Shown here piece by piece: positions 1,680-64,000 of a stretch of DNA of 64,000 nucleotides. Every line of letters begins with the position of its first letter. Position 1 is the first letter of the stretch. This DNA comes from Bifiguratus adelaidae. Taxonomy: Eukaryota; Mucoromycota; Endogonomycetes; Endogonales. The notes beneath the pieces are model-generated. The model was not told the DNA's origin, ran no database searches, and worked only from the letters and a program-made list of their open reading frames with translations. A program made the translations under genes and the position numbers. The stretch is from positions 62,001 to 126,000 of the forward strand of contig MVBO01000014.1 in the NCBI GenBank assembly GCA_002261195.1. The letters run 5' to 3'.

Positions 1680-1823
1680 TCCGATGAGAAGGATAAAGGC
1701 GCTTTTTGAATGCTGTCGTTATCTTGTAGTCACTGAGCATACTTACTGTAACTAAGCTTTTAACAGTTCAAGTGTAAAGCAAGCAAGTAAGCCCTCAAAG
1801 AGCCAACTCAACCCTTGACCGAG

Positions 1824-2919: not shown

Positions 2920-2971
2920 GAGGGGTATACGTGCTTCTACATGTATATATACAAGTCAGAATGGTCTGTGT

Positions 2972-9104: not shown

Positions 9105-9161
9105 CATATAAATAGAGTGACATTCCTATTGTTTGACGCTTTCTTTTGCTTTACGAGCACC

Positions 9162-13989: not shown

Positions 13990-14015
13990 GAGACATGTTT
14001 CCACAAGACGACAAT

Positions 14016-33356: not shown

Positions 33357-35160
33357 ATGATGGTCAACACATGCGCCCTATTACGGTTGCGCCTTTTTTG
33401 CCTCCTATTCGCGTTCATTATCTTTCGAGAGGTGCATGGAGGTAAAGATATGTTCGGATATGTTCGCTACACATCAACACTTGTATTCTGATTCCCGGCT
33501 CTTTTCTGTCTCCCGTCTGGCTAATGGTGATGCAGATTCATGTCCAACCTATGAACTCACATTTAACGAGACGAATGTCAATGCTTCGTTTACCAATCCG
33601 GAGCGTGGTTTCTTTATACCATACATTATCAATTCCAGCGGCACAGTTAGCGCGGTCAACAATTTTACTCAAGTCGCCAGCAATAATTTCACGCTCGCTT
33701 TCCTCAGTTTTGTCTTGGAGCCGTGGGCATCGAGCACCAACGCCATCAGCACCACATGGTTCAGTACTACATTGGTCCCAATTTTGCAGCTTGTTCGCAA
33801 AAATGGCCTGAAAGTGGTCCTTCGCTTCAGCTACAACAATCCATCCATAGCATATTACAATGCGTATCTCTCTTCTTCCATTCGCACCAGCAATCAGCGA
33901 AATCCAAACGGTCTATCTCCCACACAGCTCTCAGATCCACTGGTCACACCCGTCAGTGACAACAGTCTCAAAGGGGTTCAAATACACACATCACAACTTG
34001 GTCAAACATTGTCCAGTTTTCAAGACATTATACTGAGCATTCAAGCTGGGTTTGTGGGCATTTGGGGGTGAGTCACAATTCCGAGTGATTTGACCCATCC
34101 TACATACTGAACATTTCGCAGGGAGTGGCATGACTCGACACACGATATAGATAAAAATGGCAACTCGAAACAGGCAGTAGTGCAAGCGCTGCAATCCTCA
34201 TTTTCATTCGCTTCTTTGCAAATGCGTTTACCGTCTGATATACTGGAAATCTTTGGTACAACGCCCATGACAAACACCACGCCTTCGTCAGGCGTGATGG
34301 GTTTCCACAACGATTGCTTTCTGTCGTCAGCCAACGATACCGGAACCTGGGGCGCAGGCCAGTACTCTGCTTCGCAAGAGCAATCCGTCATCGGCGTCAA
34401 TGGGAATGTGACAATTGTGGGAGGCGAGACTTGTGCCGCTGACCCAACCTATTCTACCTGTTTGAATGCGCAGAGCCAACTTGCTCAATATAAATTCACC
34501 TATCTCAACGGCGTTTACAGCCCAGATGTGATTTCATTGTGGCAACAAGGTGGATGCTTTTATCAAATTCGCGACTCTCTTGGATACCAATTAGCCATCG
34601 CAAACCTCAAGGTTCGGTTCGGCGTTGAGTTGGCAGCTTCAGGAAACACGAGCTTTGACTTTGAAATCAGCATTGGCAACAATGGATATGGCGCATTGCA
34701 TCATCCTCGCCCATCTTTCCTTGTCCTGCACAGCAATTCATCGACGGATACGGGTACGCCATTTGAAGTTGCCGGTCTAGACCTTACCCAAGTACCCCCC
34801 GGGGATCAGACGACCTTTGAAGCTTCTGTCCAATTCCCTTCAACTATCCCACCGGGCAAGTACGCCGCCTCCCTGTGGTTTCCAGATCAAAACTCCACCA
34901 TTCAATCCGATCCACGTTACGCGCTCCGACTCGTCAACCCTCTCGCCTATAATCCGCAGAAAGGTTTCAATCTTATCGCACCTGAATTTTACATTTCTCC
35001 CAATGGCCGATTTGATACCTCTACAGATTGTGGTATTGTTCCATCACCCAAGGGAGGATTCTATACCATCTCATGGGCTACCCAAGTACAACCCAGCTGG
35101 TGGACTATCCTCGCCTGTATCATCATTGTCTTAACAATGGATTGGAAAATGATGACGTAG
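33357..35160 (+). CDS. Secreted/membrane-anchored DUF4874-DUF4832 protein
   Basis: Three exons (33357-33441, 33536-34067, 34122-35160) give 551 residues in phase. Residues 1-27 form a signal peptide (LRLRLFCLLFAFIIFREVHG). The N-terminal half matches DUF4874: FTNPERGFFIPYIINSSG, FLSFVLEPW, LKVVLRFSYN, and AGFVGIWGEWHDSTHDIDKN. The C-terminal half matches DUF4832: GVMGFHNDCFLSSANDTGTW, VGGETCAADPTYSTC, FTYLNGVYSPDVISLWQQGG, FEISIGNNGYGALHHPRP, and NPLAYNPQKGFNLIAPEFYI. The paired domains look like a TIM-barrel glycoside-hydrolase-like fold with a beta-sandwich, with acidic residues (WGEWHD) at the strand end; activity is not established to my knowledge. Residues near 535-548 (WWTILACIIIVLTMDW) form a terminal hydrophobic helix, either a membrane anchor or part of a GPI signal. 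Many NxS/T sites fit secretion. Confidence 0.8.
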
Positions 35161-46485: not shown

Positions 46486-49400
46486 TTAACATCTAGAGAT
46501 ATAATCATGATTGTCGTCCTCTTGCGTTTCAAAGCTCTGCACACGTAGCGCCCGGCGTGGCATAGCGTAGTTCTTCTCCCTTGAACCTCCTTCTGGATTT
46601 TCTGATTCTGTCTCTATCTGAGCGCTTCCAAAAACAGCTCGCTCCTCGATGGCTTCACCTTCCAAGTCCGAGTTCAATGTGATTACAGAGCCCACTGAAC
46701 TTTCTGATCGTTGATATTGTCCGGTGAAGAAATGGCTTAGTTCATTGGATAGACGTGAATGACGAATTTGTTTGGCGGCCTCGTTTTCTGATAATGAGAC
46801 ACTTGATAGGCTGGTGGGAGTTGCGGTCCCTTTGAGATGGGCAAGTGGCGTCGGAGCAACACCAGACTCAAGGCCAGCAACTGCACCCGAATAAAGACCT
46901 CCAAAACCAGGGGCTGGAGTTGGTGACAATAGCATGTCCGAGTATAATGGGGAAGACATTGGAATAGCCACATGTCTTCCATATCCACTAGCAGCCTTGG
47001 GACTTTCAAGTGCTTGGTTATATCTGTATTTGCCGATGAAGAGCATCTGCTCATGCTCGCGCAAATAGCGATCTCCCGAGAACTTTACCTGAACGATTTT
47101 CCGCAGATTCAACGCAACTTTACGTCGATGAGGCGATTTGTCGTACATGCGCTTTGTGATCCATTGTACATCGTACGAAGTAAAGTGTTCCGGAAGACGG
47201 GTCGGTGCATCTGCCGGGTCGTATTCATCATGCGCATATTGAGCCCAGTCGTCGAGCATTGCCAAGTACCGCAGTTGAGCTCGTGCCAGTTCATGAGGCG
47301 AGTTGGGAGGAACCGTCTCACCCCACATCTTGTTCGGATTCGATGGGTCTTGCAGTATGGTACTTGTGGCACCGACGGAAGTACAAACGATGGGTGCACC
47401 TGATAGACCAGCTTCCCCGAGTGCCAATGGAAGTCCCTCGGTAATACTGGAATTCATAAATGCCCAAGCGGTCGCCAATACCTGAGACGCATTTCCATAG
47501 CCGCGAAGCTTGACGTATTCGCCAATACCTTTCATAGCAATCAATTCTTGACACTCCACCGTGTACCAAGGTGTACGATCCACAGCACCGTAAATATCTA
47601 ATGCGTAGTCGCGGAACCCAAATTCATTCACAATGACATCGGTGGCCAAGATCGCACTGCAATGACATCTCAAATAAGAGGATAGTCGAGAACAATCGAT
47701 AAAGCATATACCTTTTTGGATCTTTGACTGGCATCAAATGTGAAAGCATCACTACAGTGGGCACTTTGCTGGTTAATTCCTTCGGAGGCTCGTATTTCTC
47801 CATGTTGGCAATTCCATTGACCACGGGATCAATTTTCTTTTGAAAGGTGCGACGGTGCATGATGCTGCCATTCCCTGTGCCGATCTCGGTCTCCCAATCA
47901 GGATTATAGAGGTTCGTACACGGCAAAACAATATCGGCGTGGTATAAAGTGAGCGTTGCAGCCAAACGCATCAATCCAAGCAAGCTATTTTGCACAAATG
48001 GACTTAGCAGGCATTGGCCAGCTGACAAGTAAGATGTGCACTCGCGCCAACTAATTCCGTGGTCCCAGATCATAAATGTGGAACCTCTTTTGAACTTGAC
48101 CACAATGCCAAACATTGCGCTGACGCTGTGATGGGTAGACTGGAAGACTGGAGGGACCACTTCGGGCACAGCGACTGAAAGAATAAACAGATATCTCTTG
48201 AACATTTCGAGACTGGAAGCGAGCGTTGTTAGTCCAGATCGTCAGAGCTGTAGGATATCTTACCATTCATCAAATTCTGCTTCTGTGGGGCACTCAATCT
48301 CTAACAATGCTGCTGTCGATCTGAGGTTTGGTCCATCCATAATCCACGCTTCTCTCCAAGCCTTCCGAACGGCGGAGTCATTCCATGTGCGGTTCCAATC
48401 GGCAGCTCCAAAGAATGTGTTGAGGGCAACTAATGACCTTGTAAATTGCTGAACATTCTTCTCCGTAAATGTGATTGTTCGACATCCCTTCACAAAGTCA
48501 ACGAGATGAGGGATAAAGTGCTCGATAACACGGGATGTCGTGTTGAATATCCGTTCCTCTACTTGACCGTCAATGAGATTCTCCACCACTCCGTGGGATG
48601 GAGTCAAGAAGTCGAGGCCCCAAAGTGGAAGAATCTTCACGCTCTGAACATTCTTCTCCACCTGAAATTTAGGCGTGCCCAGATCATTTGCGGCCTCCGC
48701 TATGAAGTGCCATCGGATATCCTTGAGTCCGTCCACGACATCACGTCGACAGTTGGACACACCACCGGCTTCAATGGGAAATGTACCGGTATCAGTGGCT
48801 AGCACTGACACCTCTTTGTCGTTGTTCAGAACATTCGAAAGGGGTGAACGAGTGTTTAAGTTTGTATCGCCACCCTAGATCACAAGCCATGAGCAAGACC
48901 TTACAAAGAAAGAACGGGGACCACTTACCGCACCCATGGCATACAGATCACTGATTTTGAACGCTAATAAGGTCATGCCACTCACGCTATCGTCAATGTA
49001 CATAGCAGCGACGATAGCCTCTTCGTTTCTCTTGAGAACAGAGCGGGCTTTTTGGATGGCCCCGCGATCCCGAGCTGCCCAATACTGTTTCAACAATGGC
49101 TCGTTGCGCAAAATCATCTCGTCCAAAATCCTTGCGTGAACTCCCTCAACGTTCTTCTCTGTCTGCCAAGTCTTCCAAAGCAATGATCGCGCATCATGGG
49201 TATTCACCTTCTTGTTAACTGTAAGCCTACCCCTTCGCGCATTGGTCGTGTGCCTTGCAAATTTGAGCAGACCCCGGTTTTGCGCAGGAGCATTCAGTGG
49301 TGCGAGAATGTCATCTTTGAGAAAGGAGACAGAATCCGGTTTGACGAAAAGTCGGTAGACGTCTTCAATGATATGATTTGGGGTTTCGATAGGCTGTCCA

Positions 49401-52400
49401 TCGCACAAGGTACTGATCTGCGGATGCCGCTTATGCTCATACACCCAAACCGTTTCGAAATTGCTGACTCCGTCGTTCCATGTCACTCGAGTGACCTTGT
49501 GAAATGGTATCCACTTTTGTTGTTTGTTGACAGGTTGTCCTTTCTTGACAGGTATAGCACACCAGTAGACTTCATAGGAGATGTGAGTGCCCAGAAATAT
49601 TGCCTTGATTAGATTGTCGCTGTTTTCTGGCTTGGGATGGTATGTATATCGAAAGGTGAAATTCTCCCTTTTACGATAAATGGAACCATGATTGACACGT
49701 CCGTATTCATCGTAAAAGAATGATTCATGACCACCATCCCTCATCTCGATCACTTTGACGTGAGGAAAGCGACGTGGGGTGCTTGCGTCGTGATCCCGAT
49801 AATAGTAGAACGCGTCTTCTTGCAGTTTGCCGTTGCTAAATTTGCATTGCCGCAGCAATTGTTCCTTTTTGTCATAGTATCCAATGGCTTTCAGATTCTT
49901 GTCATTCTTGGGTCTGCTTTTCAGGATACCCTCGTACTGGCGAAGAACCATGGCAACGCGACGATTGCCAAGGCCTTCCTTCGGTGCCGAAAGGGGTATG
50001 CTTTGAAGATCCAAAATGTCTGTTTCCGGGATGTCAAAGAACCCTGTCACAGAAGATCGCGGATCATGGATGGTTATGCAATCCGGTGTGCGGACTATTT
50101 TGATGCCAGATTTCACCGCATTGTTGAGCCTGCGGAGAGCGGGCCGGTAGTGCCAGAGCAAACGCTCTATCCAGAATCGAGTAAATGGCCTGCCAACCAT
50201 AGAGAGACGGGTGTGGAAGACGATGACAAATGCCCTCATCCAGTTGGGTAACTTGCGAGATGCAAAGTCTATCTCGCGGGGTAACTCAATGTTTCCACTG
50301 GTTGCAAAAAGCAGGAACTTGCTCGCGTAATAGCCAGTCGACAGGATGGATCCGTATGCATCTTGCACGATCGCAAGGAACTTTCCTGATTTGGCCAGAG
50401 CGTCAACGTGGTCGAGATCCTGGAACTCATAGTCGGGAATATCCTCCTTTTGGGTCCATTGGCCGTTGTAGATGGGAGCATCAGGCATCGTACGATCACA
50501 TTCCTGACATAATTTGGCGCGAACTGCCATCGCCAGTCGCACGCACGCGTCGTGTATTGCCACCAGACCTGTAGTTGACAGCTTGAGCTCGCCGGCCCTC
50601 TGCGCTTCCAAGACACCCTCCAGCTCATCTGTTACCATTGGCGAGTTGGCAGTCAGAGTGACCCGATCCACAACGACGCGACGCACGGTGCTTGGAAGAT
50701 TGTCCCAATCAGTGTCAATGTCGATACCCAGAGCCAAATGATTCAGAACGACGTTGTCAGTCCCATCGCTTAATGTGTTTGCAGTCATCCAGCTGATCTG
50801 CTCTGACACTCTTTCGGGGACATGAACATCTCCGTGCAAAAGCAGCTGCAATGGATCGAGTTTAGCCACTCCAAGCTCTCAGACTTCATCTCGATAATCA
50901 CTTACCTCAGACACGCAAGCAATCGTATGAGAAGTGCCGAGTCCCATTTCACATGTTTCATGAACAAGTGCTTCAGCTATTTGCATATGCGTGGAGCGTG
51001 CGAAATCGGATTCCAGCCACGACTTTGAGATGTCCGGTACGCCAGCATAGATGATCATGGCCTGAGTCACAGGATCGATGTGCGCAAGAGCAGAGTATTC
51101 AGCGCCCTTATAGGCAGCCAGGAGCGTGCGTGGAACAACCACTATCCGAGTGCGCCCACTTTTCCAATCTTCCAGGGATTTCTGGAAAATGAGCTTTTCC
51201 TGTCCATCAAAGGCATTGTGCAGTGTCTCCGATTGTTCGAGGCTGAGAGCATGCTGCAAGATATCGTCGAGTATGCAACCAAGGGTATCGCTTCCGTGAG
51301 GGGAGATCTCAACCTTCAAATGGGGGCGTAGTCCTTGAATGTCATCAAGTATTTGTGCTGCGCATTTTGGCCGATGAGCATTGCCGATCCATCGTTGTCC
51401 CGATGTCAAGTTGTTCTTCTTTGACCGCAAGTCCACGATATGAGGTGTTTCAGACATTTCGTCCATGTTCTTGCTACTTCCCAGCTTGAAGTCCGCTGAG
51501 AAGAAGTTGATCCCGGCAGCAATCCACGCGACAGCAATTAGGCAGATTACCTCCGTATAAAGGAAGGTGGGATACTTGGCGCGGAGAACGCAACCGATAA
51601 TCATGCCGGTAAGGACGGCCAAAGCAATGACATTAAATGTGGCCTTCCCCCCGGGCATAAAGATCCTATTGAATTGCATCATAAGGACTCCGGTATACCC
51701 AATTATGTAGAGGAAGAAGGCAATAATGGCCTCCGAATCCCTGAGAGAAAGCCAAGCCAAAAGAGTACTAATGGCCAATGCAAAGAATAGGGACCAAACG
51801 TACTCGAAGAGGCTGAAGATGTAGATGTGCAATCTTCTCCTTGCTTTCCCGTTAGTTGAGCGTGCGAGCTGGGTCTCGGTACGGATACGATCGTCACTCT
51901 TCTTCCAGATTGCCTTGTACACCGATATTGCATGTATCTCGAGACTGATAGACCCCAGAAGGTAGTACATTAGTCCAAACGATGTTGCCAAGGAATAGTC
52001 CACATGGCCATTGACAGCCAAGGATAAACCAATGATATCACCTCCGGTCAGAAGAACGATCCAGCGGTCCAGCAGTGCAACGAAGAAATAGATGATGCCG
52101 TACCCCATTTCGAGGTAGCAGTATCTCCACAACAGCCCGAGGGAATGTTGCTTGAGAGCTTGATTGTACTGGTACATGGTAGCCAGAGCAACCTTGAGTT
52201 GCAAGTTCCATGATGACGAGAACGGAAGTGGCATGGGCGCCGAGTTACAGCGACAATACCACTCGAGCAGAAAGCGAGAAAACGCAAAGCTCTCTGCTTG
52301 CTCTTTCACCAAAGTGTCGTCTGTTGGCTTCGAAAATCTGTCCCGCATTCTTTCCGATTGAACCTCTCGATTGAATTGTGTGCGCGCAACTTTGTTTGCG

Positions 52401-55400
52401 TACGGAACTGTGGCCTTGTCGAAACATTGCTTGTTTCCGTTGGCGTGTTTGGCGATGTACCAATCCAGAACAGTCTTGTTGTCAGTGATGTCGATTCGAT
52501 CAAGGTAGGAATTCCATTCTCGAAAAAGACGACGCATGAAGACGATGAGACAGAAAGAGAACGCCGATAATTGAAGGAAGTAGACCAAGATGATGAAGCG
52601 GGAGGGGAGAAAAGGACAAATGATTGGCGCGATAACGAGAATTAGCAGCGATTTTGCCATCCTTGATCTGCCAGATTGCATTGGAATATTGTCCATGTGA
52701 ATAGTACTCATAGTACCGAGAACTAGCAGGAAGAAGGAGAACACCGCAGTGTAGAATAACCAGATATAAGCTGCGACTATGCCATATTGACATCCACAAA
52801 CAATGCAACCGATAGCTGCGATTAAAAGGTTGATGAGGACACCTGAGGCGAACATTTGCACTAGAACGACGGACATTGTTGGAAAGACCATCGCATGCAG
52901 ATAATGTGAGCCTAATATGCCTATGCCGCCGTTGATTCCGCCAGCCGTTATGAGCGAAATGATCATTGTGTAGGAGGCTAAAGTGACATGGATGGGATCC
53001 ATTGCCACCGACATAAACAAACCATGACCATGAAAAGTCAAAAGAGCCACGTCGACAAATGCGGGTATGCAAAAAATACCCTACACGGAACGTTTCAGCA
53101 ATTGTAAATTAAACGCCGCCGTCAATCATACTTACGATAGATGTTAGGCTCACCCAGAACTTGGGAATGGGCCCGTAATCAGCTTGAACGCTCGTAGGTT
53201 CAGGATCGGTATCGGTGTTTGCGCTCAAATAAGCCCCCATAAAGTTGACGCCGTCGAATGCATCCGAGATCTCGTTGACGGACTTATCCTTCGCCAATTG
53301 ATCTCTCGCCATCAGATCATTTCTCGCACGATTGGAAAGTATCGTGCCTAACTCGGATGGGGTCATATCGAGATCACATTTAGATCCAATAACCCATAAC
53401 TCTGCGTACACCGCAGCCTGGTCAGAAAAAGGTGATAGAAGAGGATTGCGATCCGTCATCTCCACATAGATGTCTTCCAATGCATACTTCTTCAGCGTGG
53501 TGAAGAACAAAAAGAAGAAAAGGTTGAATCGTACGTCCAAAGCTTCCGATGAAGGTGTCGATGTAGATTGCATGTTCTTGAGAATTTGGGTCATTTGCTG
53601 TAGGGTCTCGTAACTATTATTCAACAAAACCCAATGCATCCAGTCATCAATCTCCTGTTGTAAGCGGATGGCATCGCTCATATCAGGTATCGTGAGACAA
53701 TCAAGTGAAGAGTACCACTCATATCGCTTTTGCAACAATTCTTGAAGAGTCATCCGTCCATCGTAGAATTGAACGAGGTACTTTCCGTTGACCTGCTTGA
53801 TTTCCAGTTGGTCCAAGAGTAGAAATTGACACAATTGCCGCAAATCTCCGATGGCAACATCATAATTTCCGGAGGAGGAGCTGGCATTGGTTGACTTTGT
53901 GCAACTTGTAGATAGTTTTCGGAGTATGCTAAGCAATCCCCTTGGGCTCGATTTAGTGAGCTGGTCAATAACGCGAATGGAGAGGTGTGGATATTTCTGG
54001 CGCATAGGTGACGTTGGCGTTTCAAGCATACTTTCAATTAAGAAAGCTCGTTGTGGTGATACGTCAGAGGCGGATAGATAGCATCCTAACACCGCCGCTG
54101 CAAGATGTGGCGCTTTCAATGTTACGTAAATGTGCATCTTGTGTGTATGTTGCCGAACTTCAAGGGAGAACGGAGCAAAGGCGTGCAGGCCTGCACGGAT
54201 AGGTTGCAAAGGTGCAATTTGATCAGAATGAAAAGATGAGGGACGAGATGAGATGCTGTCCATTGGGTGATTGTGCTCCACAGTCCTGGAATTATGCTCG
54301 CGTTCGAAGACGCTAGAAAAGTGCACTCTGCCTTGTTTGAGCCAGAAGGCTGAGTCCAGCCCTTGCCATACGCAAATGCGATTGCTTTCAAGCTCACTGA
54401 TCAAGGTTCTTATGCTTGCGAGCTCATCGTGAAGGATATAAACATCGCCCCTAAACCGCCGTTTGTTGCTTTCGCAGCAAAGGACGCTCAATTCCGCGAT
54501 GATTTGATCTTTGATGGAGGAATCAATAGGATGCAGCAAATTCTTGGCACGCAGGTCAGCTTGGATGTCGACCAAGCGATTAAAGTCGGTTACTGTCGGC
54601 GCGTGTCCAAGGTCATAAACACCGTAACTTGATTCATCACCAAAGAGCGCATTCACGCGTATTCCTTCATATGCTGACTGGGTATTGGAGCCAAGTGTGG
54701 ATGTTGTGCTAGATCGTGATCTCTGTGAGCTGGGTATGGAGAGGATACTGCTCGATCTTAGTGTCTTGGCGCCGGTATCGTGATTAACGTGGCTATGCCC
54801 TAATCGGTCAGCCACATTGATGTGGGCACCAAAAAATGACTGGAAAGTCGGAAACCAATGCGACAAGATTTGATTGCACTCCATAGGCAGAGCCTCATGC
54901 ATTTCGTACACCGTAACATTGGACAACCATTGATTTTTGATTTGTAATAGATCTGCCCGTCGTAACCATTCCAAGGCACTCATGGGTACGCTGGTTGTTC
55001 TTGGAAGGTGCGATGCTGGCTGGTATAAAGCGAACTTTGGAGCAACCCAAGTAATACCTTCGTAATACTTTGACCATTTGAAAGCGCGTCTCCAAACAGC
55101 GATATCGACATCATCAATGTTTGAGACGAGTTCGGCGAAGAAGAGTGTAAAATCTTTTCGAATAGAGGACTGTTTGATGGCAAGTTCGATAGTGGCTCGA
55201 AGGGCCCGCAAGTCAAAGTAGTCGCGACGTTTGCCCGTCTCCGGCATGATTGTCGCATTGTGTATGAGGAAGCCTGAGACCCTTCCAAGTTTGAGTAATT
55301 TGGCATCGTTCCTTCTCACAAAATCCGGAGGTGTGACTTCGAGATATAGCTTGAGATTATAACCCCTGGGTATACTTGTGATAAGCAGATTGATAATGTT

Positions 55401-56085
55401 GATCGGTAGAGATTCCCATCCGGCCAGAACCACTCCATCATACAGGATCCGAGCATGTGTAGTGCTTGGCTTCCAAAGAGCATCTAGCCGCTGAAACAGC
55501 TCTGAGATGGCGCTCTTGTATTTCTCCGCAGAGGAATCCTCGATGGTTGGAATTTCAATACGTCCCAGCAAGCTTGATCCACGAAACCATTGTCGAAGTT
55601 CTGTTGCAATGACGGCCTGCTTCGGATCGATCACTAAGGTACCATAGGAAGATAAAATGCGCTGAATGTGCTCATCTTGCTCGAAATATAGAAAAGACCC
55701 TAGATAGATTCCAAAGCTTGTAGGTCTGTTTGTGACTGGTCTCGGTATTGAGAACGGTGATTTTCGAAGAAAGAATTTAGTAAACGATTCGAGCCGCCGT
55801 AAGGAGGTTCGACGCCAAGGCGACTCGGTTGATGCTCGCTTTCGCCGCCTAAAAGTTAGACGTATCAGGACTAAGAGCAAGTAGATGGCAGAGAAAATGA
55901 AGCTGATACCGAAAATCACACCAGTCGCCTAGGTACAGGTTAGCAAACACGGCACACCGACACGCATATAAGATCTTCACCTTTACAGCGGGTGTGGACC
56001 ATAGATTCGAAGCTGGTCTCAACAAATCACCCATGTAGTAGTCCAAAGGTTCCTCTGATATGACGCTGTTACGCGACTCGGCCAT
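46486..56085 (-). CDS. gtb3: Giant membrane-embedded PelF-like GT4 glycosyltransferase (GAG synthase Gtb3-like)
   Basis: Seven minus-strand exons (55981-56085, 53136-55928, 50906-53080, 48929-50845, 48264-48874, 47712-48212, 46486-47656) total 9,273 bases, 3,090 residues, all in phase. A membrane helix lies at about 38-61, then an 800-residue soluble module of unknown fold. About 12 membrane helices span roughly 950-1,550 (e.g. VTLASYTMIISLITAGG), then a 700-residue region. The GT4 domain starts near 2,355 with TGTFPIEAGGVSNCRRDVVD and PLWGLDFL, then IWDHGISWREC, VMLSHLMPVKDPKSAILATD, WYTVECQEL, and the EX7E pair at E2774/E2782 (SITEGLPLALGEAGLSGAP). This order is that of PelF, the Pel polysaccharide polymerase. 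In Aspergillus the GT4 Gtb3 with Uge3 and Agd3 makes galactosaminogalactan; the neighbours here are the same. Polymerisation and export is inferred. The Ser/Thr-rich C-tail is probably cytosolic. Confidence 0.85.
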
Positions 56086-57806
56086 GCGGAATGAAGGAAG
56101 GAGCCAACAGTGTTAGACTTATTTGCATTGACCAGCGATCCGAAACATTGTGCTTCGCCAGAATTTCCAAATTAAGGACTGTGCTTCGCAGGTTAACACT
56201 CGTTACATGAGAGTGACACCGATCCCAACGTGGCACACCTGGTGGATTCTTGGGTTGCATTGTTGGAAAATTATTTTTGGTACTGGGCGCTGGTGCATAC
56301 ATAACTTTCCCGGAGAAAATGGTTATTGCAACGTCTGGAAGGTCACAGTTTTGGCCTTGCAATTGATGGTCTTTGAACAGACAAAGAGGCGATGGATTAC
56401 TTCTGGGCACGGTCTATTTGCTCGGTATTAGATACTTCAGATGCCACCTATAGTCGACCTTACTCTATTCAGAGCATTGCATTCTGCGGCAAAATGGCAT
56501 TACTTAAACGGAATGGTAAAGTCTGCGCTAAAAATACTTCCAAACAAGACGCCAACAGTGCAGCGCATCTTTGACGATCTCTCCTTCCCGTTACCTGGAA
56601 ATCTTTCGGGTAAGGTTGCTCCAGAGAAAAAACGTGATGCGATCAGATATCCCAAAGTGGAAGTCTGACAAATTTGGGAACCCCTGCGACGTCGGCCTGA
56701 GGATGGCAACGGGTACAGAAGATATGTAGATGGCTTTTGAGCTGGCAAGAGATGATGGCGCTATTGTGAGATATACACGGAACACAATGCGTCTTCGAAT
56801 TGACGTCACTGCCATGTTTTGGATATGCCATGTCAGGGGTACAACGAAGATGAAGGCTGCTTTAACAGTCCCCGGAGGGCGTGCGGATCGTCGATTACTT
56901 GCTTGGATATGAGCATTGAGCGGAGCATTTGCCAACAAGAAATAGTGATGGTCTACGATCGCCGGAACAAGTGCGAGATTGCCAGATCAAAATGACTTAA
57001 ATGTTTGGTAACCGGTTCATGCACTCACATCAAGAAGAGCTAATGAATAATGGCGTAGATTGCGCCATGCGCATAGCTTAAATGTCGATCATAAAGCTAC
57101 ATGAGCGCATATGCAGATAGGACATTTGCACAGATCCCCTAGGGATGGTCCCCGCATCTATGTCTTGGAGTCGTCAGGTTCGGTGCAAAGCGTGGCCGGA
57201 GGTCAGGCGTCGATTCCAGAACGTAACCGCGAAATTTAAGCGTAACAGAGAGGATCGGTAAGAGCGCTTTCTCGCAATCCTTTCGGTACCTTTCCAAAGA
57301 CACCGCACGTCGATCATTGTTGACCCAGAATACAGAGATGCATATACACAAAGCATCCGTTATACTACCCACTTCCTCCATCGTCACACCGCAGATATAA
57401 TGCATCTCACGTTTCATCGTCATTCATTTTACTCACTGGCATGAACAGGCCACGCCAAAATCTTTGAACAGACTATCCATGGACGACGACATCCACCCCA
57501 GATTTCGGGAGGTACCCAGCACTGGATCAAGGAAGTTTTGAAGGAGAAACTGGAAATTTCCTGCTCAGCCTATGGTTTGAGACACTCCGAAATTTCAAAA
57601 AATAGGCCGTGGAATTTTTATCACGGTGCCGAGGTCCACATTTGGAATCTTGCGCCGCTGAGCAAACAAAAACCCTTATAACCCTTATAAGATGCTAGTC
57701 TTCGCTTGAGAGAGCGACATTTTGCTGCGCGGTTATATAACTGAATTTTACCAATTGGACTTTCGCGTATCCAATTAAGGCACAATTTACCAACCTGTAG
57801 ATCAAC
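56086..57806. promoter_or_regulatory. Shared 1.7-kb divergent regulatory region (gtb3-like / uge3-like)
   Basis: The synthase and epimerase genes are transcribed away from each other from this region. It has no supportable gene; the longest frames (minus strand, 57139-57423 and 56591-56938) lack motifs. On the epimerase side there is a TATA box, two CCAAT-type boxes (ccaattgg at 57751-57758, ccaatta at 57771-57777) and a short tandem acccttata at about 57672-57690. Common control of both genes is an inference. Confidence 0.55.
57733..57740 (+). promoter_or_regulatory. TATA box of the epimerase gene
   Basis: The sequence ttatataa sits 67-74 bases before the ATG at 57807, with CCAAT-like boxes just downstream. 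Position and sequence fit a fungal core promoter. Confidence 0.6.
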
Positions 57807-59101
57807 ATGTCGCACGTTGCTTACAATTCACCTCTTCCATCGCCTGAGCTCACACCAGCGGCGTCTCCAGAAGCATCTGTATGCTTATTCGGATTGAGCG
57901 ATCTGAAGCGGCGACACATCATTGTGACCGGTGCGGCCGGCTACATTGGATCACATTGCATGCTGGGACTGATCCAAGACGGCTTTCAAGTTGTTGGTAT
58001 TGATGATTTGTCGAACTCGAGTATAGGTAAGCATGAGCTCAATCAAACATTGTGCACATGACTGATATGATTGCAGAGTCCCTCGAACGTGTAGCGCTAC
58101 TGACTAAGACGCCATTCATACCTTTCTACAAGGCGTCCATCCTCAACACAGCCGCCCTACGTAAAATTTTCTCAATCTACAATGTAGCTGCCGTTATTCA
58201 CTTTGCTGGCCTTAAAGCTGTCGGTGAATCCATCAAAAACCCTGAGGCTTACTATCAAACCAACGTTATCGGCACGATGCGATTGTTAGATGTCATGAAG
58301 GAATTCAATGTTCAAAACATTGTGTTCTCGAGTTCAGCGACAGTCTATGGCGGTAATGCAGACAAACTCAAAATTGGCGAGCAAGTTAGAGAAGACTTTC
58401 CACTCAAAGCCACCAACCCGTATGGTAGAAGCAAGTTATTTGTCGAAGAGATTCTTCGGGATTATGCCGCTGCGTCTGATCCCAATTGGAAACTCAATGT
58501 TGCAATATTACGATATTTCAACCCTGTCGGTGCACATCCTAGTGGCCTCATAGGCGAACATCCCCAAGGCACTCCAAGCAACCTTCTACCGTATATCACT
58601 CAAGTTTGCGTCGGTCAACGACCTTACTTGGGCGTCAATGGAGCCAATTATCCAACACCAGACGGTACAGCAATGCGCGATTTCATACATGTTATGGACC
58701 TGGTTGACGGACACATCCTCGCGCTTGAAAGACTCGTCAATGATGAACCAGGTGTTGTGACTTACAATCTGGGAACTGGCAAAGGCTACTCTGTGATGGA
58801 CATGCTAAAAGGCATGGAGAAGGCCAGCGGTAAGCGCATACCCTTTAAGTTTTGTCCGGAACGACCTGGTGATGTCAGTTGCCTCGTTGCGGATCCAAGT
58901 AAAGCCTATGCTGAGCTCGGTTGGAAAGCGAAACGTGACATTACCCACATGTGTCATGACGCTTGGAATTGGCAACGGAATAATCCGCATGGGTATTGTA
59001 AAGCCGAAAACAATAACTCTGGTAAATCAAGCAGGAGGGACACCCGGCGCTCGTTGCATTCAGGAAAATTACTCCCATGGTCATCTTCATCGAGTGCCTA
59101 A
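57807..59101 (+). CDS. uge3: UDP-glucose/UDP-GlcNAc 4-epimerase (Uge3-like)
   Basis: Two exons (57807-58026, 58077-59101) give 414 residues. An extra N-terminal 35 residues precede the Rossmann motif VTGAAGYIGSHCML. The SDR catalytic residues are present: FSSSATVYGG and Tyr189/Lys193 in NPYGRSKLF. Other epimerase marks: VIHFAGLKAVGESIKNPEAY, ILRYFNPVGAHPSGLIGEHP, DGTAMRDFIHVMDLVDGH. By my alignment the substrate-gating residue (Tyr299 in E. coli, Cys307 in human GalE) is Leu343 in GDVSCLVADP, a smaller side chain that should admit UDP-GalNAc. It would therefore make UDP-galactose and UDP-GalNAc for the neighbouring synthase. The usual end NPHGY is followed by about 34 extra Ser/Arg-rich residues, which may be an unspliced intron (a gt at 58,991) or a real tail. 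Confidence 0.93.
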
Positions 59102-59466
59102 TCATAGACTCAAACGTATCCAATTGTCGCAGGTTTCTCATATTTGTATATTCTTCTCATACAATTCAATAATTTCCCAAGCTCTAAACATAGCCAGGCA
59201 GTACTGTTTGCATTGGCATGTATTCGGCGCAGCAACGATAAAATTAGCTAGAGACCATGGCATTAGCTGTTTCTACTGCGAACATCAATCCTCACAATTC
59301 GAGACAATGGAAGGAAATTTGTAATGTTAGTAGTGCTACGCCCTATTTCTGGATTTGTTAGCCGCATTGTTTGGTGTCAGCTATTCTTGCCTTCTTGTCT
59401 CGGTTGGCCAAAGGTGATACATAAATAACAGGCTGCTTCTTGTCGAATTGATTGTACTTTACCATC
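59102..59466. promoter_or_regulatory. Promoter region of the deacetylase gene
   Basis: The 365 bases between epimerase stop and deacetylase ATG contain the A/T-rich acataaataaca at about 59,419-59,430, some 40 bases before the ATG and a candidate TATA element. Nothing else seen. Confidence 0.45.
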
Positions 59467-62067
59467 ATGTATCGTCCAGCATACGTAGCGACGATTTTGG
59501 TGCTTGCCTTGGTGCTATTGCATCAAGAAGTAACTGCCGTGCCGGCTTCCAATGGCAACCGATCTAACAAAACCAGAAAAGGCGGTCACCAACATGGTAT
59601 CATCCATTCTGCGCCTGTCATGACTTTGGCTCAAAAGCCAGGTCAACACGGATACGCTGTGACTCAGCAGGGAAATCGCTGGGAAGACTCATCCAAAGCT
59701 GGTGTTGGTCAATTCCCTGGCATCTTGGCTGTTCCTGAAGTGTACATCCCTGATACATCCAATTCGACCAACGTTATTCAAGCTAACGGCACTGGCGGCA
59801 CCCTAACTAAGAGAGCACTCAATTTCACCCCTCTTCGTCCGACGGGTACTACTACATCTACCCGCTCACCCGCGCGCACTTCGCCTTCTTCAAGGAGGCA
59901 CCGCTCTTCTGTAACGCGTATGATCACTGGTGTTCCTTCCACGAAGACCGCGACTCCGTCGGCATCGGGGTCTGCAGCGCCCAGTTCGAGTCCTGGTAAC
60001 GGCACCATCGTCCCACCATCGTCTATCTCGATCGACAACAAGGTGTTGATCATTGCTCCAAAAGATGGCTCCGAAGCTTCTCCGGGTCTCACGCTTAAGG
60101 GCTACGGCATCCCTTATGACATTCTCTTGGTGGATGCCTCTGGTATTTCTGGCAATCTTTCGTTGGAGGACAGTGAAAATCATGGCAAGTATTCATTGAT
60201 TGTCTTGTCGGCCGATGCCTCGGTTCAACATGCTGATGGCTCATGGAGCTCCGCCCTTACAACGGACCAACAGACCCAGTTGAACCAGTACCAACAAAAG
60301 TACCGGGTTCGCAGGGTATTGTACAATGTCAGCCCGTCTCCTGCCTATGGTGTTAACCCAGTGTCGATTGCTGGCTGCACTGGTTCCAGCGATGCTCAAA
60401 ACATCTCGTTCACGCCCGAAGCTACCTCCAAATTGTTCCCCACTGCGGAGCTCAAGCCGAACGTTGGTCTCAACGCTGCTGGTTTGTGGTGGTACTGTGC
60501 GGTGCCTGCGTCCACCAACGGTACTACTGTCACCCCTGTCCTTTCAGTCCATGGAAAGAATGCCTATGCTGCTGTCGCCGTGACTTACCCTGACAATACC
60601 GAATCCATGATCTTCTTCTTGGGCTTCGGTGACTGGTCGACGACCTCTGCGTTTGTTAATCATGCATGGATTCAATGGGGTCTCCGTGGTACTTACTCTG
60701 GTTACCGTCGCATCCTGCTTAACACCCAGATTGATGATCTCATGCTATACACCGATCCTTATCCCGTCATTGGCAATAACCCGGACAACCCGGACCCCAA
60801 CAACCCCATCGGTCGTATCGTGCCCGAGGATTTGGATGGTCTAGTTGCTTGGCAAAAGGATTTCAACTCTCGCTTGCCTGCTGGTTCTGCCTACAAGCTC
60901 GAATGGGGTATCAACGGCAACGGCATCCCCGCCGCTTGCCCACCCGACAAATGCCCCAACGGTGATACCTCCCTGAGCTGGGATGATTTGCCCGAGTTCC
61001 CTCCGGGAGTAGAGTACAAGAAGCCCCTTGGTACTGGTCTTCAACAATGGCCCCAACCTGCTCCGAAATTTATTTGGTCCTTGACCGACTGCCAAAACGA
61101 TGCCCTGTGCTCTTGGTTCTTGCAAGCTTCCAATGCCGATGAGTTCAATATTCTCTCGCATACCTTTACGCACGAGTACCTTACCAACGTCACCTACTGG
61201 GATTGCGCTCAAGAGATAATCTTTAACCGCCAGATGTTTGCTGTTCTTGGTTTTGACAAATTCTCCGGTTACTCTTCAAAGGCATTGATCCCTCCTTCCA
61301 TTTCGGGTGTCACCAATGGTGAATGTATCCATGCTTGGCTCGACAACGGTCTCACGTCTATCGTCGGGGACAACTCGCGTCCCATCCTTCTGAGCAAACA
61401 AAACCCTGGTTACTGGCCGGAGATTTCCTCCTCGGCTGTCAATGGCTGGGACGGTATGGAGATCATTCCTCGTAACCCAACGTCGATCTACTACAACATT
61501 GGTACTCAACAAGAGTCCGAAGCCGAGTTCAATGCCATCTACGCCGGCAAATTCCCGCAAAACCAGACCTTTGAGGACATTCTCAACAATGATCTCAACT
61601 ACTTTGCACCCAAGCTTCTCAACTTGCGTCAAGACCCTTACATGTTCCATCAACTCAACCTTCGCAACCATGACTTGACCCCTTCAACTCTTCCCAATGG
61701 CCAAACTGGTCAATACGGTCTATTGCAACGCTGGGTCGAGCACATGACGCACTTTATGACATCGGTAGCCAACTGGCCTATTCTATCCAACAAGCAAGAT
61801 GATCTCGCTGTGTTCTTCATGGACCGCATGAACCGCGATCAATGTGGTTACTTGGCGACCAACTTGATCGACAATGGCAAGCTGACCGGTATCACCGTAT
61901 CGGCTAACGGTACCTGTACTGTACCCATCACTATTCCCAAGGATGCCTCCTTTAGCAATACGGGTGGATGGAAGACAGAGCAGTTGGGTAATGATCCAAT
62001 CACTATCTGGGTGCCTGTGTCTGCTGGCAATTCGGTGACTATTCCCTTGTCAGGTGTATCTCTTTAG
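59467..62067 (+). CDS. agd3: Secreted polysaccharide deacetylase (Agd3-type, CE18)
   Basis: A single uninterrupted frame; the ATG at 59467 gives 866 residues and a good signal peptide (MYRPAYVATILVLALVLLHQ, cleavage near VTA-VPA). Residues about 115-180 are a Ser/Thr/Pro-rich linker. A Rossmann-like domain follows (KVLIIAPKDGSEASPGLTLK, YSLIVLSADASVQ), then the deacetylase barrel: ILLNTQIDDLMLYTD with the metal-binding Asp pair at 423/424, and the His motif LSHTFTHEYLTN at His565 and His569. WIQWGLRGTYSGYRR and VNGWDGMEIIPRNPTSIYYN further match the Agd3 family. In Aspergillus, Agd3 removes acetyl groups from GalNAc in galactosaminogalactan, making the polymer cationic and adhesive. No GPI signal is seen. 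Gene order beside the epimerase and GT4 synthase supports the same job here. Confidence 0.9.
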   Translation: MYRPAYVATILVLALVLLHQEVTAVPASNGNRSNKTRKGGHQHGIIHSAPVMTLAQKPGQHGYAVTQQGNRWEDSSKAGVGQFPGILAVPEVYIPDTSNSTNVIQANGTGGTLTKRALNFTPLRPTGTTTSTRSPARTSPSSRRHRSSVTRMITGVPSTKTATPSASGSAAPSSSPGNGTIVPPSSISIDNKVLIIAPKDGSEASPGLTLKGYGIPYDILLVDASGISGNLSLEDSENHGKYSLIVLSADASVQHADGSWSSALTTDQQTQLNQYQQKYRVRRVLYNVSPSPAYGVNPVSIAGCTGSSDAQNISFTPEATSKLFPTAELKPNVGLNAAGLWWYCAVPASTNGTTVTPVLSVHGKNAYAAVAVTYPDNTESMIFFLGFGDWSTTSAFVNHAWIQWGLRGTYSGYRRILLNTQIDDLMLYTDPYPVIGNNPDNPDPNNPIGRIVPEDLDGLVAWQKDFNSRLPAGSAYKLEWGINGNGIPAACPPDKCPNGDTSLSWDDLPEFPPGVEYKKPLGTGLQQWPQPAPKFIWSLTDCQNDALCSWFLQASNADEFNILSHTFTHEYLTNVTYWDCAQEIIFNRQMFAVLGFDKFSGYSSKALIPPSISGVTNGECIHAWLDNGLTSIVGDNSRPILLSKQNPGYWPEISSSAVNGWDGMEIIPRNPTSIYYNIGTQQESEAEFNAIYAGKFPQNQTFEDILNNDLNYFAPKLLNLRQDPYMFHQLNLRNHDLTPSTLPNGQTGQYGLLQRWVEHMTHFMTSVANWPILSNKQDDLAVFFMDRMNRDQCGYLATNLIDNGKLTGITVSANGTCTVPITIPKDASFSNTGGWKTEQLGNDPITIWVPVSAGNSVTIPLSGVSL

Positions 62068-62150
62068 GTTAGGTTGAATGATTGTAGGTCTCATAGATTG
62101 GAATATAGTGTTATTTTTGCCCACGGTGGCCGAAGGATGCCGACAATGAC

Positions 62151-62157
62151 TATAAAT
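62151..62157 (+). promoter_or_regulatory. TATA box of the formamidase gene
   Basis: The sequence tataaat lies 45-51 bases before the ATG at 62202 and within the 134-base gap after the deacetylase gene. Confidence 0.55.
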
Positions 62158-62201
62158 GGCATTCTACCTCTCCGAAGCTACGCTCCGTCTCCGGATTCAC
62201 G

Positions 62202-63249
62202 ATGGCCTCTCACTCCATTCACACCATAACGCATACTCACCTGGCATGGGACAATAGTATACCACCCGTACACAGAGTCAGTTCAGGTTCCCTTGTGCAT
62301 TTCGACTGTGTGGACGCATCCAACGGTCAAGTGCAAGCGGACTCGACGATCGCTGCCATTCATTCTTTTGACTTTAGCAGACTGGACCAGGTCAATGGTC
62401 CCGTGTATGTAGAAGAAGCAGAGTCAGGAGATGTGCTGGAAGTCGAGGTTGTGGATATCGAGACAGCCGAGTGGGGATGGACAGGTATCATTCCCAATTT
62501 CGGCCTGTTGGCCGATGAATTCACCGAGCCTGCGTTGAAGATTTGGCAGATTGACCGCAAGGAAGGTGTTGCCTGGTTCAAGGAGGGTATTAAGATACCT
62601 ATTGCTCCATTCTGTGGAGAGATGGGGGTGGCTCCCGGTGAACCTGGCCCTAAATCCACCATCCCACCTTATCATCATGGCAAGTAGATTGATAAAGGTT
62701 ATGAATGGCAACATTAACCGTCCATTAGGCGGTAATATGGATACAAAGCACATCACCAAGGGATCACGTCTGTATTTGCCCGTTCAAGTCAAAGGTGCCT
62801 TGTTTTCCTTGGGAGATGGACATGCCGCTCAAGGTGACGGCGAATGCTGTGGTAAGTGCGCCTGCGCTCCATTTTGCATCTTGCAGAACTTGACGGGTGG
62901 CATTTGACGCACAGGCACCGCTATTGAAACTCCAATCAAGGTAACCGTGCGACTGACGGTTCATAAATCATGGAACGTCAAGGAACCCGAATTCACAACA
63001 GCTGGACCACTCGCAACCCATACCAATACTGGCCCATATCATTGCTGTACCGGTGTCCACGCAGACGTTGTCGAGGCGACCAGAAACGCCATCCGCAACA
63101 TGATGGATTACCTGCAACGTACAAGACATCTCACTCGCACCGAAGCGTACATGCTCTGCTCAGTTGCAGTTGACCTGAAACTCTGCGAAGTCGTCGATAT
63201 GCCTCATTTTGTCGTCGGTGCCTTTCTTCCTCTCTCCATCTTTGTCTGA
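62202..63249 (+). CDS. Acetamidase/formamidase (FmdA_AmdA family)
   Basis: Three exons (62202-62679, 62729-62851, 62915-63249) give 311 residues in phase. The first intron starts with gcaagt instead of gt. Family marks: HLAWDNSIPPVHRVSSGSLV, GPVYVEEAESGDVLEVEVVD, GIKIPIAPFCGEMGVAPGEP, GGNMDTKHITKGSRLYLPVQ, GALFSLGDGHAAQGDGECCG, IETPIKVTVRL, and CSVAVDLKLCEVVDMP. These include the conserved Glu, His and Asp residues around the active site of FmdA_AmdA proteins. The enzyme hydrolyses formamide (or acetamide) to ammonia and the acid, in the cytosol. Its position between the deacetylase and UAP1 may be chance; a link to N-acyl or amide recycling is only a thought. Confidence 0.92.
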
Positions 63250-63414
63250 TGTATCCAGCTGTTAGATTTCTCGCCTTCTGATTAGCTCATCTGCTCAGCC
63301 TTACAGAGTGGGCTAGTTCAATGAATGTCTCCTTTTGTGGAATAACCGACCCTCAACAAGCTATTTTTATCTTGAGGCTTCTCGTCGGGCTTGAAGCGTT
63401 TGAGCTTCTGCACA

Positions 63415-63440
63415 TCTCTCTTTCTCTCTTTCTCTCTCTT
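63415..63440 (+). repeat. Pyrimidine tract upstream of UAP1
   Basis: A 26-base CT run (tctctcttt-type) ends 13 bases before the UAP1 ATG. Such tracts are common near transcription starts of highly expressed fungal genes. Confidence 0.5.
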
Positions 63441-63453
63441 GTCATCACCACCA

Positions 63454-64000
63454 ATGGTCTCACTAGATACTCGAGTACAAACACTGCAAGCCAAGTGGGA
63501 GGCCGCCGGTCAAGGTCACGTCTTTGCATTCTGGGAAACTCTCTCGTCATCAGAGCAAGCACAGTTACTGTCACAGCTCGAAGGCATTGATGTGGATAGA
63601 GTCAATAGAGTGTATTACAAGGCTACCGGAGGTCCGAATGGAGATGAACCGCCCAGATCGCCTATTGTCAAGGATGATGCCGCGCTGGCACCTTTGCCCG
63701 ATCATGTTTTTGACTCGGTTTTGAGCGCGGGGGATAAGGTCGACGAGTGGAGGAGTGTGGGGCTGCAGGCTATTGCTGAGAACAAAGTGGCTGTAATCTT
63801 GATGGCGGGTGGTCAAGGAACACGTCTGGGCTCCTCCGATCCGAAGGGATGCTACGATATCCATCTCCCCTCGGGCAAGACTCTGTTCCAACTTCAGGCC
63901 GAACGTATTCTCAGGCTGCAGTCGTTGGCTCAGGAGGTTGCGCAAGCCGGTACAGAGGTTGTTATTCCATGGTATATCATGACTAGTGGGCCCACCAACC
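63454..64000 (+). CDS. UAP1: UDP-N-acetylglucosamine pyrophosphorylase, 5' part
   Basis: The ATG at 63454 opens a frame that runs uninterrupted to the window edge (182 codons), so the 3' part is missing. The N-terminal helical domain (VQTLQAKWEAAGQGHVFAFW, LLSQLEGIDVDRVNRVYYKA) leads to the pyrophosphorylase signature VAVILMAGGQGTRLGSSDPKG, then CYDIHLPSGKTLFQLQAERI and PWYIMTSGPTN. This is the uridylyltransferase that joins UTP and GlcNAc-1-phosphate to UDP-GlcNAc in the cytosol, the precursor for chitin, N-glycans and GPI. Its product is the substrate for the nearby epimerase to make UDP-GalNAc. No intron is visible in this part. Confidence 0.95.
   Translation, partial: MVSLDTRVQTLQAKWEAAGQGHVFAFWETLSSSEQAQLLSQLEGIDVDRVNRVYYKATGGPNGDEPPRSPIVKDDAALAPLPDHVFDSVLSAGDKVDEWRSVGLQAIAENKVAVILMAGGQGTRLGSSDPKGCYDIHLPSGKTLFQLQAERILRLQSLAQEVAQAGTEVVIPWYIMTSGPTN

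What the first reader, a model, noticed from the sequence alone, without database searches (positions are those of the whole stretch)
46486..64000. Putative galactosaminogalactan / Pel-like exopolysaccharide locus including UAP1
Three neighbouring genes match the gtb3 (PelF-like GT4 membrane synthase), uge3 (4-epimerase) and agd3 (secreted CE18 deacetylase) core of the Aspergillus galactosaminogalactan cluster. The next but one gene is UAP1, which makes the UDP-GlcNAc used by the epimerase. The locus thus spans precursor synthesis, epimerisation, polymerisation/export and deacetylation. I know of no description of UAP1 or a formamidase in this cluster, and the host appears to lie outside the Pezizomycotina in which the pathway was defined.
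Basis: partly seen in the sequence, partly recalled or inferred. Interest (0 to 1): 0.93.

Follow-up and report, generated by a model that had tools for sequence, protein, structure and literature searches.

The report
Galactosamine slime gene cluster with UAP1
A fungus, probably outside the main ascomycete/basidiomycete group, carries a compact gene cluster that looks able to make a sticky galactosamine-rich coating like that of Aspergillus, and beside it lies a second copy of the gene that makes the sugar precursor.

Summary
Window 46486-64000 carries a giant synthase gene (Gtb, 3071 aa, seven exons, 10-11 hydrophobic segments, PelF-like GT4 domain), a divergent GalE-type epimerase, a secreted CE18 deacetylase (Agd3, aligned catalytic residues kept), a formamidase and UAP1: the synthetic core of a galactosaminogalactan (GAG)/Pel-like pathway.

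New here: UAP1 is one of two copies in the genome (69% identical), and the linked copy is slightly the more diverged. GFA1 has one main locus. A dedicated UDP-GlcNAc supply is plausible, not proven; other genes are duplicated too. Sph3-like (GH135) and Ega3-like (GH114) genes lie on other contigs. The formamidase is probably a bystander.

Host: a CSL transcription factor argues against Pezizomycotina and Saccharomycotina. Two small rooted trees place it outside the Dikarya sampled (support 89 and 91). Agd3 homologues were already reported from chytrids (PMC7229062). In my open-library searches I saw no linked synthase/epimerase/deacetylase locus outside Dikarya, and within basidiomycetes only Trichosporon asahii. 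Verdict: a new variant of a known system, of moderate interest.

The parts
46486..56034 (-). gtb: giant GAG/Pel-like synthase, 3071 aa; N-terminal hydrophobic segment, unassigned domains, a multi-TM block at residues about 940-1480, C-terminal PelF-like GT4 at residues about 2312-2900. Introns 55929-55986, 53081-53135, 50846-50905, 48875-48928, 48213-48263, 47657-47711
   Evidence: Exon joining; hydropathy; Pfam/NCBIfam; relative P0003 at 30-31% over the TM exon
46486..48874 (-). GT4 (PelF-like) catalytic region of gtb with DUF3492 in front, exons 5-7 (includes introns 48213-48263 and 47657-47711)
   Evidence: NCBIfam PelF 73.9 bits (cut-off 100), Pfam DUF3492 29.4, Glyco_trans_1_4 47.1 bits
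56035..57806 (.). 1.77 kb intergenic region between the divergent gtb and uge starts, candidate shared promoter
   Evidence: Coordinates; no significant shared motif found
57807..59101 (+). uge: GalE-type UDP-hexose 4-epimerase, intron 58027-58076
59467..62067 (+). agd3: CE18 deacetylase, 866 aa, signal-peptide-like start, CBM87 + CE + C-terminal domain
   Evidence: Pfam; 6nwz alignment with catalytic residues kept; only match in the genome
62202..63249 (+). fmdA-like formamidase/acetamidase gene, introns 62680-62728 (GC-AG) and 62852-62914; probable bystander
   Evidence: Pfam FmdA_AmdA 211.9 bits; gene model
63454..64000 (+). UAP1 paralogue, UDP-N-acetylglucosamine pyrophosphorylase, 5' part; coding match continues to contig position 126947 (window-equivalent 64947)

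Best explanation
The locus makes a partly de-N-acetylated, GalNAc-rich exopolysaccharide of the galactosaminogalactan/Pel kind. UAP1 makes UDP-GlcNAc; the GalE-type epimerase converts it to UDP-GalNAc (and perhaps UDP-Glc to UDP-Gal); the giant membrane protein Gtb polymerises the sugars with its PelF-like GT4 domain and passes the chain through its membrane block; secreted Agd3 removes acetyl groups so that the polymer becomes positively charged and sticky. The UAP1 beside the cluster is a second copy kept for this pathway, while the copy on contig C273 serves chitin and general glycosylation. Shown by sequence: gene identities, linkage, conserved catalytic residues of Agd3, the existence of two UAP1 genes. 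Inferred: every biochemical step, sugar specificity, export through Gtb, co-regulation, and the dedicated role of this UAP1. The formamidase is taken as a bystander.
For: Agd3 has all three Agd3-specific Pfam domains. Its alignment to the solved Aspergillus enzyme 6nwz (458 bits) keeps the DD pair, HxxxH, the CM3 arginine and the M-F-H motif that PMC7229062 (passages) reports as needed for activity; I mapped these by motif and spacing. Gtb is one 3071-aa chain. Simple hydropathy gives 11 peaks: one at the N terminus, one weak at residue 181, nine between residues 942 and 1476. Its C-terminal domain's best NCBIfam match is PelF. VdGtb, shown to be needed for GAG in Verticillium, is 2856 aa with 11 predicted TM (passages of PMC13245733). 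A metagenome protein, P0003, has the same TM block and, by eye, the same preceding motif. The epimerase is GalE-like. UAP1: two copies, 335 of 488 aligned residues identical. Of nine solved UAP-type proteins listed for both copies, eight score higher with the C273 copy (for example 4bma 556.5 vs 535.4 bits) and one (8qh2) 0.8 bits lower. Both keep the GTRLG..PKG motif. GFA1 gave one main locus: four of six match rows on C53, the other two weak, 22.7 and 23.6 bits. uge, agd3, fmdA and UAP1 are co-directional with gaps of 365, 134 and 204 bp (from the coordinates). With roughly 7,000 genes (my assumption for 18.6 Mb), a UAP1 copy falling within three genes of the trio by chance has a probability of about 0.2%, or about 0.7% if about eight precursor-supply genes are allowed.
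Against: PelF score is below NCBIfam's own equivalog cut-off. No informative library model matches the N-terminal, middle or TM exons of Gtb, so export by Gtb is unproven. Sph3, whose loss abolishes GAG in A. fumigatus according to PMC7329490 (passage), is not linked here, nor is Ega3. Other genes are duplicated too: two calcineurin A loci, TPS-like matches on five contigs, and two more GalE genes, so a second UAP1 is not unusual in itself. The three UAP1 residues that may set GlcNAc selectivity do not differ between the two host copies (M/A/A in both). The chance estimate was made after seeing the result. No expression data; no relative with synteny could be examined.
Confidence: 0.82

Rival explanations
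1. The Gtb-Uge-Agd3 trio is a real GAG-type locus, but UAP1 and the formamidase are ordinary neighbours with no role in it.
For: Several other gene families are duplicated in this genome. Known clusters have five genes without UAP1 (PMC4817252, PMC11356417 passages). The formamidase between Agd3 and UAP1 has no obvious step in the pathway.
Against: Chance adjacency of a UDP-GlcNAc-making gene to a UDP-GlcNAc-using cluster is under about 1% by my rough count; tight co-directional spacing; the linked copy is the more diverged of two by most comparisons.
Confidence: 0.4
2. The product is a Pel-like homopolymer of GalNAc/GalN or another HexNAc polymer rather than galactose-containing GAG.
For: GT4 domain is closest to PelF among NCBIfam models; a UAP1 in the locus points to HexNAc supply.
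Against: CE18 plus CBM87 Agd3 and one giant chain are GAG-type features; bacterial Pel uses a multi-protein inner-membrane complex and the PelA deacetylase domain (PMC9030451 passages).
Confidence: 0.35
3. The host lies inside Dikarya (Basidiomycota or a basal ascomycete) and the cluster is another case of spread within Dikarya, as in Trichosporon asahii.
For: Acetyl-CoA synthetase scores highest with the 5ifi protein (883 bits, which I recall as Cryptococcus) and the unrooted quartet groups host with it, 17 vs 6 vs 4 sites; that grouping fits a basidiomycete as well as a host outside Dikarya. TPS1 is closest to 6jbi (75.1% identity) and is not decisive. PMC13245733 reports Gtb relatives in basidiomycetes (passage).
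Against: Rooted ACS tree puts host outside (5ifi,(7kdn,11km)) with support 89. Calcineurin A rooted on an animal puts host outside (6tz8,(5b8i,6tz7)) with support 91 and 5 vs 2 vs 0 informative sites.
Confidence: 0.25
4. The locus was acquired by horizontal transfer from an ascomycete or bacterium rather than inherited.
For: Patchy distribution; transfer was argued for T. asahii and, from bacteria, for the cluster's origin (PMC4817252 and PMC7229062 passages).
Against: Agd3 is distant from the one fungal Agd3 at hand (458 bits over 683 query residues); Gtb has six introns. I did not search for mobile elements beside it. None of this excludes an old transfer.
Confidence: 0.4

Closest known systems
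Aspergillus fumigatus galactosaminogalactan cluster (uge3, sph3, ega3, agd3, gtb3)
   Same: Linked epimerase, TM glycosyltransferase and CE18 Agd3 with CBM87
   Different: Here sph3- and ega3-type genes are on other contigs; a formamidase and a second UAP1 follow agd3; the host is not Pezizomycotina
Trichosporon asahii GAG cluster (basidiomycete)
   Same: GAG locus outside Pezizomycotina
   Different: T. asahii Agd3 nests in Sordariomycetes and is read as recent transfer (PMC4817252); no relation to Sordariomycetes could be tested here, as only one fungal Agd3 was at hand
Agd3 homologues of Chytridiomycota (anaerobic gut fungi, Gonapodya prolifera)
   Same: Agd3 in early-diverging fungi, reported in PMC7229062
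   Different: The passages that I read give no linked synthase/epimerase for them; here the trio is linked
Verticillium dahliae VdGtb
   Same: Giant chain (2856 aa) with 11 predicted TM, needed for GAG (PMC13245733 passages)
   Different: 3071 aa here; its sequence was not at hand, so not aligned
Bacterial Pel system (PelF GT4 in an inner-membrane complex; PelA deacetylase)
   Same: PelF-like GT4 domain with DUF3492
   Different: Single fused eukaryotic chain; CE18 deacetylase; no Pel membrane-protein model matched
Fungal UAP1 (AfUAP1)
   Same: Same enzyme family with catalytic motif kept
   Different: Two copies here, one beside the GAG trio

Membership tests
CE18 / Agd3 | Three-domain CBM87-CE-C architecture | tested here: met
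   371.7 (CE), 169.2 (CBM87) and 48.4 (C) bits, cut-offs 27.6, 27.6 and 27.5
CE18 / Agd3 | Catalytic D377, D378, H510, H514, R613, H668 (A. fumigatus numbering) | tested here: met
   All aligned identical to 6nwz, mapped by motif and spacing from PMC7229062
CE18 / Agd3 | Falls inside the fungal Agd3 clade on a tree | not tested
   Only one fungal Agd3 sequence available; the protein search (7999 candidates scored) gave 2 proteins at 25-31%
Gtb3-type GAG synthase | Very long chain (2856 aa in V. dahliae) with about 11 TM segments | tested here: met
   3071 aa; 11 hydrophobic peaks, one of them weak, by simple hydropathy
Gtb3-type GAG synthase | Orthology to A. fumigatus Gtb3 | not testable with these tools
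   No Aspergillus Gtb3 sequence found at hand; the N-terminal exon search (7998 candidates scored) found nothing
PelF (GT4) | NCBIfam NF038011 equivalog cut-off of 100 bits | tested here: not met
   73.9 bits, E 1.3e-20: PelF-like, not filed as PelF
Pel membrane proteins (PelG/PelD/PelE) | Pfam or NCBIfam match in the membrane part | tested here: not met
   No family at E up to 1 (NCBIfam) or 5 (Pfam) for exons 2 and 3; exon 4 gave one chance-level NCBIfam row, PgfA, E 0.13. I did not check which Pel models the libraries hold
Uge3 bifunctional epimerase | GalE-family epimerase | tested here: met
   Pfam GDP_Man_Dehyd 152 and Epimerase 146.6 bits for the long exon; solved UDP-glucose 4-epimerases, best 389.9 bits
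Uge3 bifunctional epimerase | Acts on both UDP-Glc and UDP-GlcNAc | not testable with these tools
   Specificity residue alignment was ambiguous
Five-gene GAG cluster | sph3 (GH135) and ega3 (GH114) in the same locus | tested here: not met
   One GH135 match on C265, three GH114 exon matches at one place on C242; cluster lies about 108 kb and 90 kb from the ends of C46
Cluster definition used in PMC4817252 (GT, epimerase, deacetylase and either hydrolase) | At least one hydrolase in the cluster | tested here: not met
   so it looks like a GAG locus but is not a complete cluster by that definition
UAP1 | Catalytic Thr140, Arg141, Lys148 of AfUAP1 | tested here: met
   Motif GTRLGSSDPKG; residues from PMC3888555 section 9

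The most novel reading that the evidence does not exclude
GAG synthesis is not a Pezizomycotina invention. A linked synthase-epimerase-deacetylase locus, with its own duplicated UDP-GlcNAc supply enzyme, exists in a fungus outside Dikarya. The pathway would then be ancient in fungi and lost many times, or repeatedly transferred, and the linked UAP1 would be the first precursor-supply gene of this kind seen in a GAG locus, possibly adapted to feed UDP-HexNAc to it.
Probability: 0.33. Interest if true: 0.75.

Novelty: new variant of a known kind. Interest (0 to 1): 0.52.

Why it matters
GAG is a main adhesive and immune-masking polymer of moulds, and its origin is open: PMC7229062 supports transfer from bacteria to an ancestor of Pezizomycotina. 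A linked core locus in a fungus outside that group, and probably outside Dikarya, makes that origin directly testable. A cluster-borne UAP1 would show how the pathway might secure UDP-GlcNAc without competing with chitin synthesis.

Tried and rejected
Tilletiaria anomala as host was considered because its genome is 18.7 Mb in 289 contigs (whole text of PMC4056295); rejected because its G+C is 56% and this window is 46-51%. Thamnocephalis was considered and not supported: the co-assemblies in PMC6784888 have 478 to 8,398 scaffolds (passages); this genome has 286 contigs. Lipomyces and other Saccharomycotina were considered and set aside because of the CSL factor. A 5.8S rDNA pattern gave one match with two mismatches, which I took as chance. 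The radial-spoke search as a test for zoosporic fungi gave nothing and none of its 14 controls rang, so it says nothing. The paper search for 286 scaffolds with 18.6 Mb gave none. Protein homologue searches, each scoring about 8000 capped candidates: Agd3 gave 2 proteins, the TM exon 1, the N-terminal exon none. The genome-contig scan with Agd3 (22 pattern hits) confirmed no relative. The plasmid scan gave 6 records at 21-24% identity; of these I opened one, which has no glycosyltransferase annotated within 8 kb. A single-sequence structure of the Gtb N-terminal region was useless (mean pLDDT 31.3), so no fold search was made. Shared promoter motifs: one 11-mer shared by the gtb-uge and uge-agd3 stretches and one by gtb-uge and fmd-uap1, about what chance gives by my estimate. 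A substrate-specificity residue in the epimerase was looked at and dropped as ambiguous. I considered a role for the formamidase in handling released acetate or amide and found no evidence for it.
Full report
What is there. The window is part of contig C46 (62001-126000) of an unnamed 18.6 Mb fungal genome in 286 contigs. At 46486-64000 lie five genes. gtb runs leftward; uge, agd3, a formamidase and UAP1 run rightward from a 1.77 kb divergent region. The spliced gtb protein has 3071 residues. A simple hydropathy scan finds an N-terminal hydrophobic segment, one weak peak at residue 181, and nine further peaks between residues 942 and 1476. Its C-terminal 587-residue piece has DUF3492 and GT4 matches, and its best NCBIfam match is PelF, at 73.9 bits against a cut-off of 100. 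Exons 2 and 3 match no family in either library; exon 4 gave one chance-level NCBIfam row (PgfA, E 0.13).

Agd3. The 866-aa single-exon protein has the three Agd3-specific Pfam domains. phmmer against solved structures gives one protein, 6nwz, at 458 bits. The aligned catalytic aspartates, the HxxxH pair, the CM3 arginine and the M-F-H motif are identical. The residue list is from passages of PMC7229062; I placed the residues by motif and spacing. It is the only Agd3 match in the genome. A start of the form MYRPAYVATILVLALVLLHQEVTA suggests a signal peptide; this is my reading, not a prediction by a tool.

UAP1. The gene continues past the window end. A second copy lies on C273, with 335 of 488 aligned residues identical; third codon positions are 34.6% identical while first and second are 79.4%. 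I read this as an old duplication with both copies under selection. Nine solved proteins are listed for both copies: eight score higher with the C273 copy (4bma 556.5 vs 535.4 bits, human AGX1 498 vs 483.4), one slightly lower (8qh2 453.4 vs 454.2). Catalytic motif residues are kept. At the three positions that PMC3888555 (section 9) ties to possible sugar selectivity, both host copies read M, A, A, so these do not tell the copies apart. As a check on specificity of the duplication, GFA1 gave one main locus (four of six rows on C53, two weak rows elsewhere), but calcineurin A has two loci, TPS-like matches lie on five contigs and GalE-like genes number three including the clustered one.

Hydrolases. 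One Spherulin4 (GH135) match lies on C265 and one GH114 gene (three exon matches) on C242. The cluster sits about 108 kb from one end and 90 kb from the other end of its 216.6 kb contig, so neither is closely linked. I did not check these two genes for membrane anchors or catalytic residues. By the cluster definition of PMC4817252 (transferase, epimerase, deacetylase and at least one hydrolase; passages) this locus would not count as complete.

Host. The window holds a CSL (LAG1-DNAbind) factor at 20571-24527. A 2007 survey found CSL genes in Taphrinomycotina, basidiomycetes and a zygomycete, but in no Pezizomycotina, Saccharomycotina or chytrids (passages of PMC1973085). Acetyl-CoA synthetase: unrooted site counts group host with the 5ifi protein, 17 vs 6 vs 4. 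With two bacterial outgroups the host branches before (5ifi,(7kdn,11km)), support 89. Calcineurin A with an animal outgroup: the host branches before (6tz8,(5b8i,6tz7)), support 91; informative sites 5 vs 2 vs 0. TPS1 has no outgroup and is not decisive: the host is closest in identity to 6jbi (75.1%) and 5hvm (73.0%) and less so to 8fhw and 5hut (71.6% each); site counts favour host with 8fhw in two of three quartets (10/6/3, 9/5/5) and are flat in the third (7/6/7). I conclude: not Pezizomycotina, fairly firm; outside Dikarya, likely (about 0.75). Each tree has five or six sequences and support under 95, and the organisms behind the PDB codes are recalled, so this is moderate evidence.

What is known. 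GAG clusters were reported in 28 species among more than 250 fungal genomes, all Pezizomycotina except Trichosporon asahii (section 14 of PMC4817252). Agd3 homologues were later listed from 311 species, including five of Chytridiomycota (passages of PMC7229062). PMC13245733 reports Gtb relatives in ascomycetes and basidiomycetes (passages). So Agd3 outside Dikarya, and Gtb in basidiomycetes, are not new in themselves. My searches of the open library for GAG with early-diverging fungi or other groups and for GAG with UAP1 or formamidase listed no report of a linked locus in a fungus outside Dikarya or of UAP1 in a GAG cluster. I saw only the top rows of long lists and opened 13 papers, most as passages; subscription journals are missing and supplements could not be read.

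How it most likely works, and how sure. UDP-GlcNAc from UAP1, epimerised by Uge, polymerised and exported by Gtb, deacetylated outside by Agd3: the last three steps follow the Aspergillus model as told in PMC7329490 and PMC8224951 (passages). Confidence 0.82 that the locus makes a GAG/Pel-like polymer; about 0.55 that the linked UAP1 serves it. The chance of a UAP1 copy within three genes of the trio is about 0.2-0.7%, assuming about 7,000 genes; this is a rough estimate made after seeing the result.

Limits. No relatives of the host, no expression data and no second fungal Agd3 were available. The fold of the Gtb N-terminal and membrane parts is unknown; the one structure attempt failed and a second was not accepted.

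Noticed in passing
window 33361-35160 +: Two neighbouring open frames match DUF4874 and DUF4832, perhaps one gene of unknown function.
   Followed up: no
window 20571-24527 +: A 1318-aa open frame with LAG1-DNAbind and BTD domains: a fungal CSL transcription factor, used here as a taxonomic marker.
   Followed up: partly
window 62680-62728: The formamidase gene model that keeps the PPYHHGGNMD stretch in frame needs a GC-AG intron.
   Followed up: partly
G000 C68 and C217: Two calcineurin A catalytic genes.
   Followed up: partly
P0003 (metagenome protein, 1011 aa): An unnamed Gtb-type protein with the same membrane block and, before it, a DRNPL...FSDQ stretch also seen in this Gtb near residues 840-860; that part matches no family in the libraries.
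   Followed up: partly
L038 (Burkholderia stagnalis plasmid), 7920-10043: An Agd3-like protein annotated as hypothetical, with no glycosyltransferase annotated within 8 kb.
   Followed up: partly
window 6604-7626 -, 12934-14364 -, 27740-29089 -: Long open frames of 340-476 aa without Pfam match.
   Followed up: no
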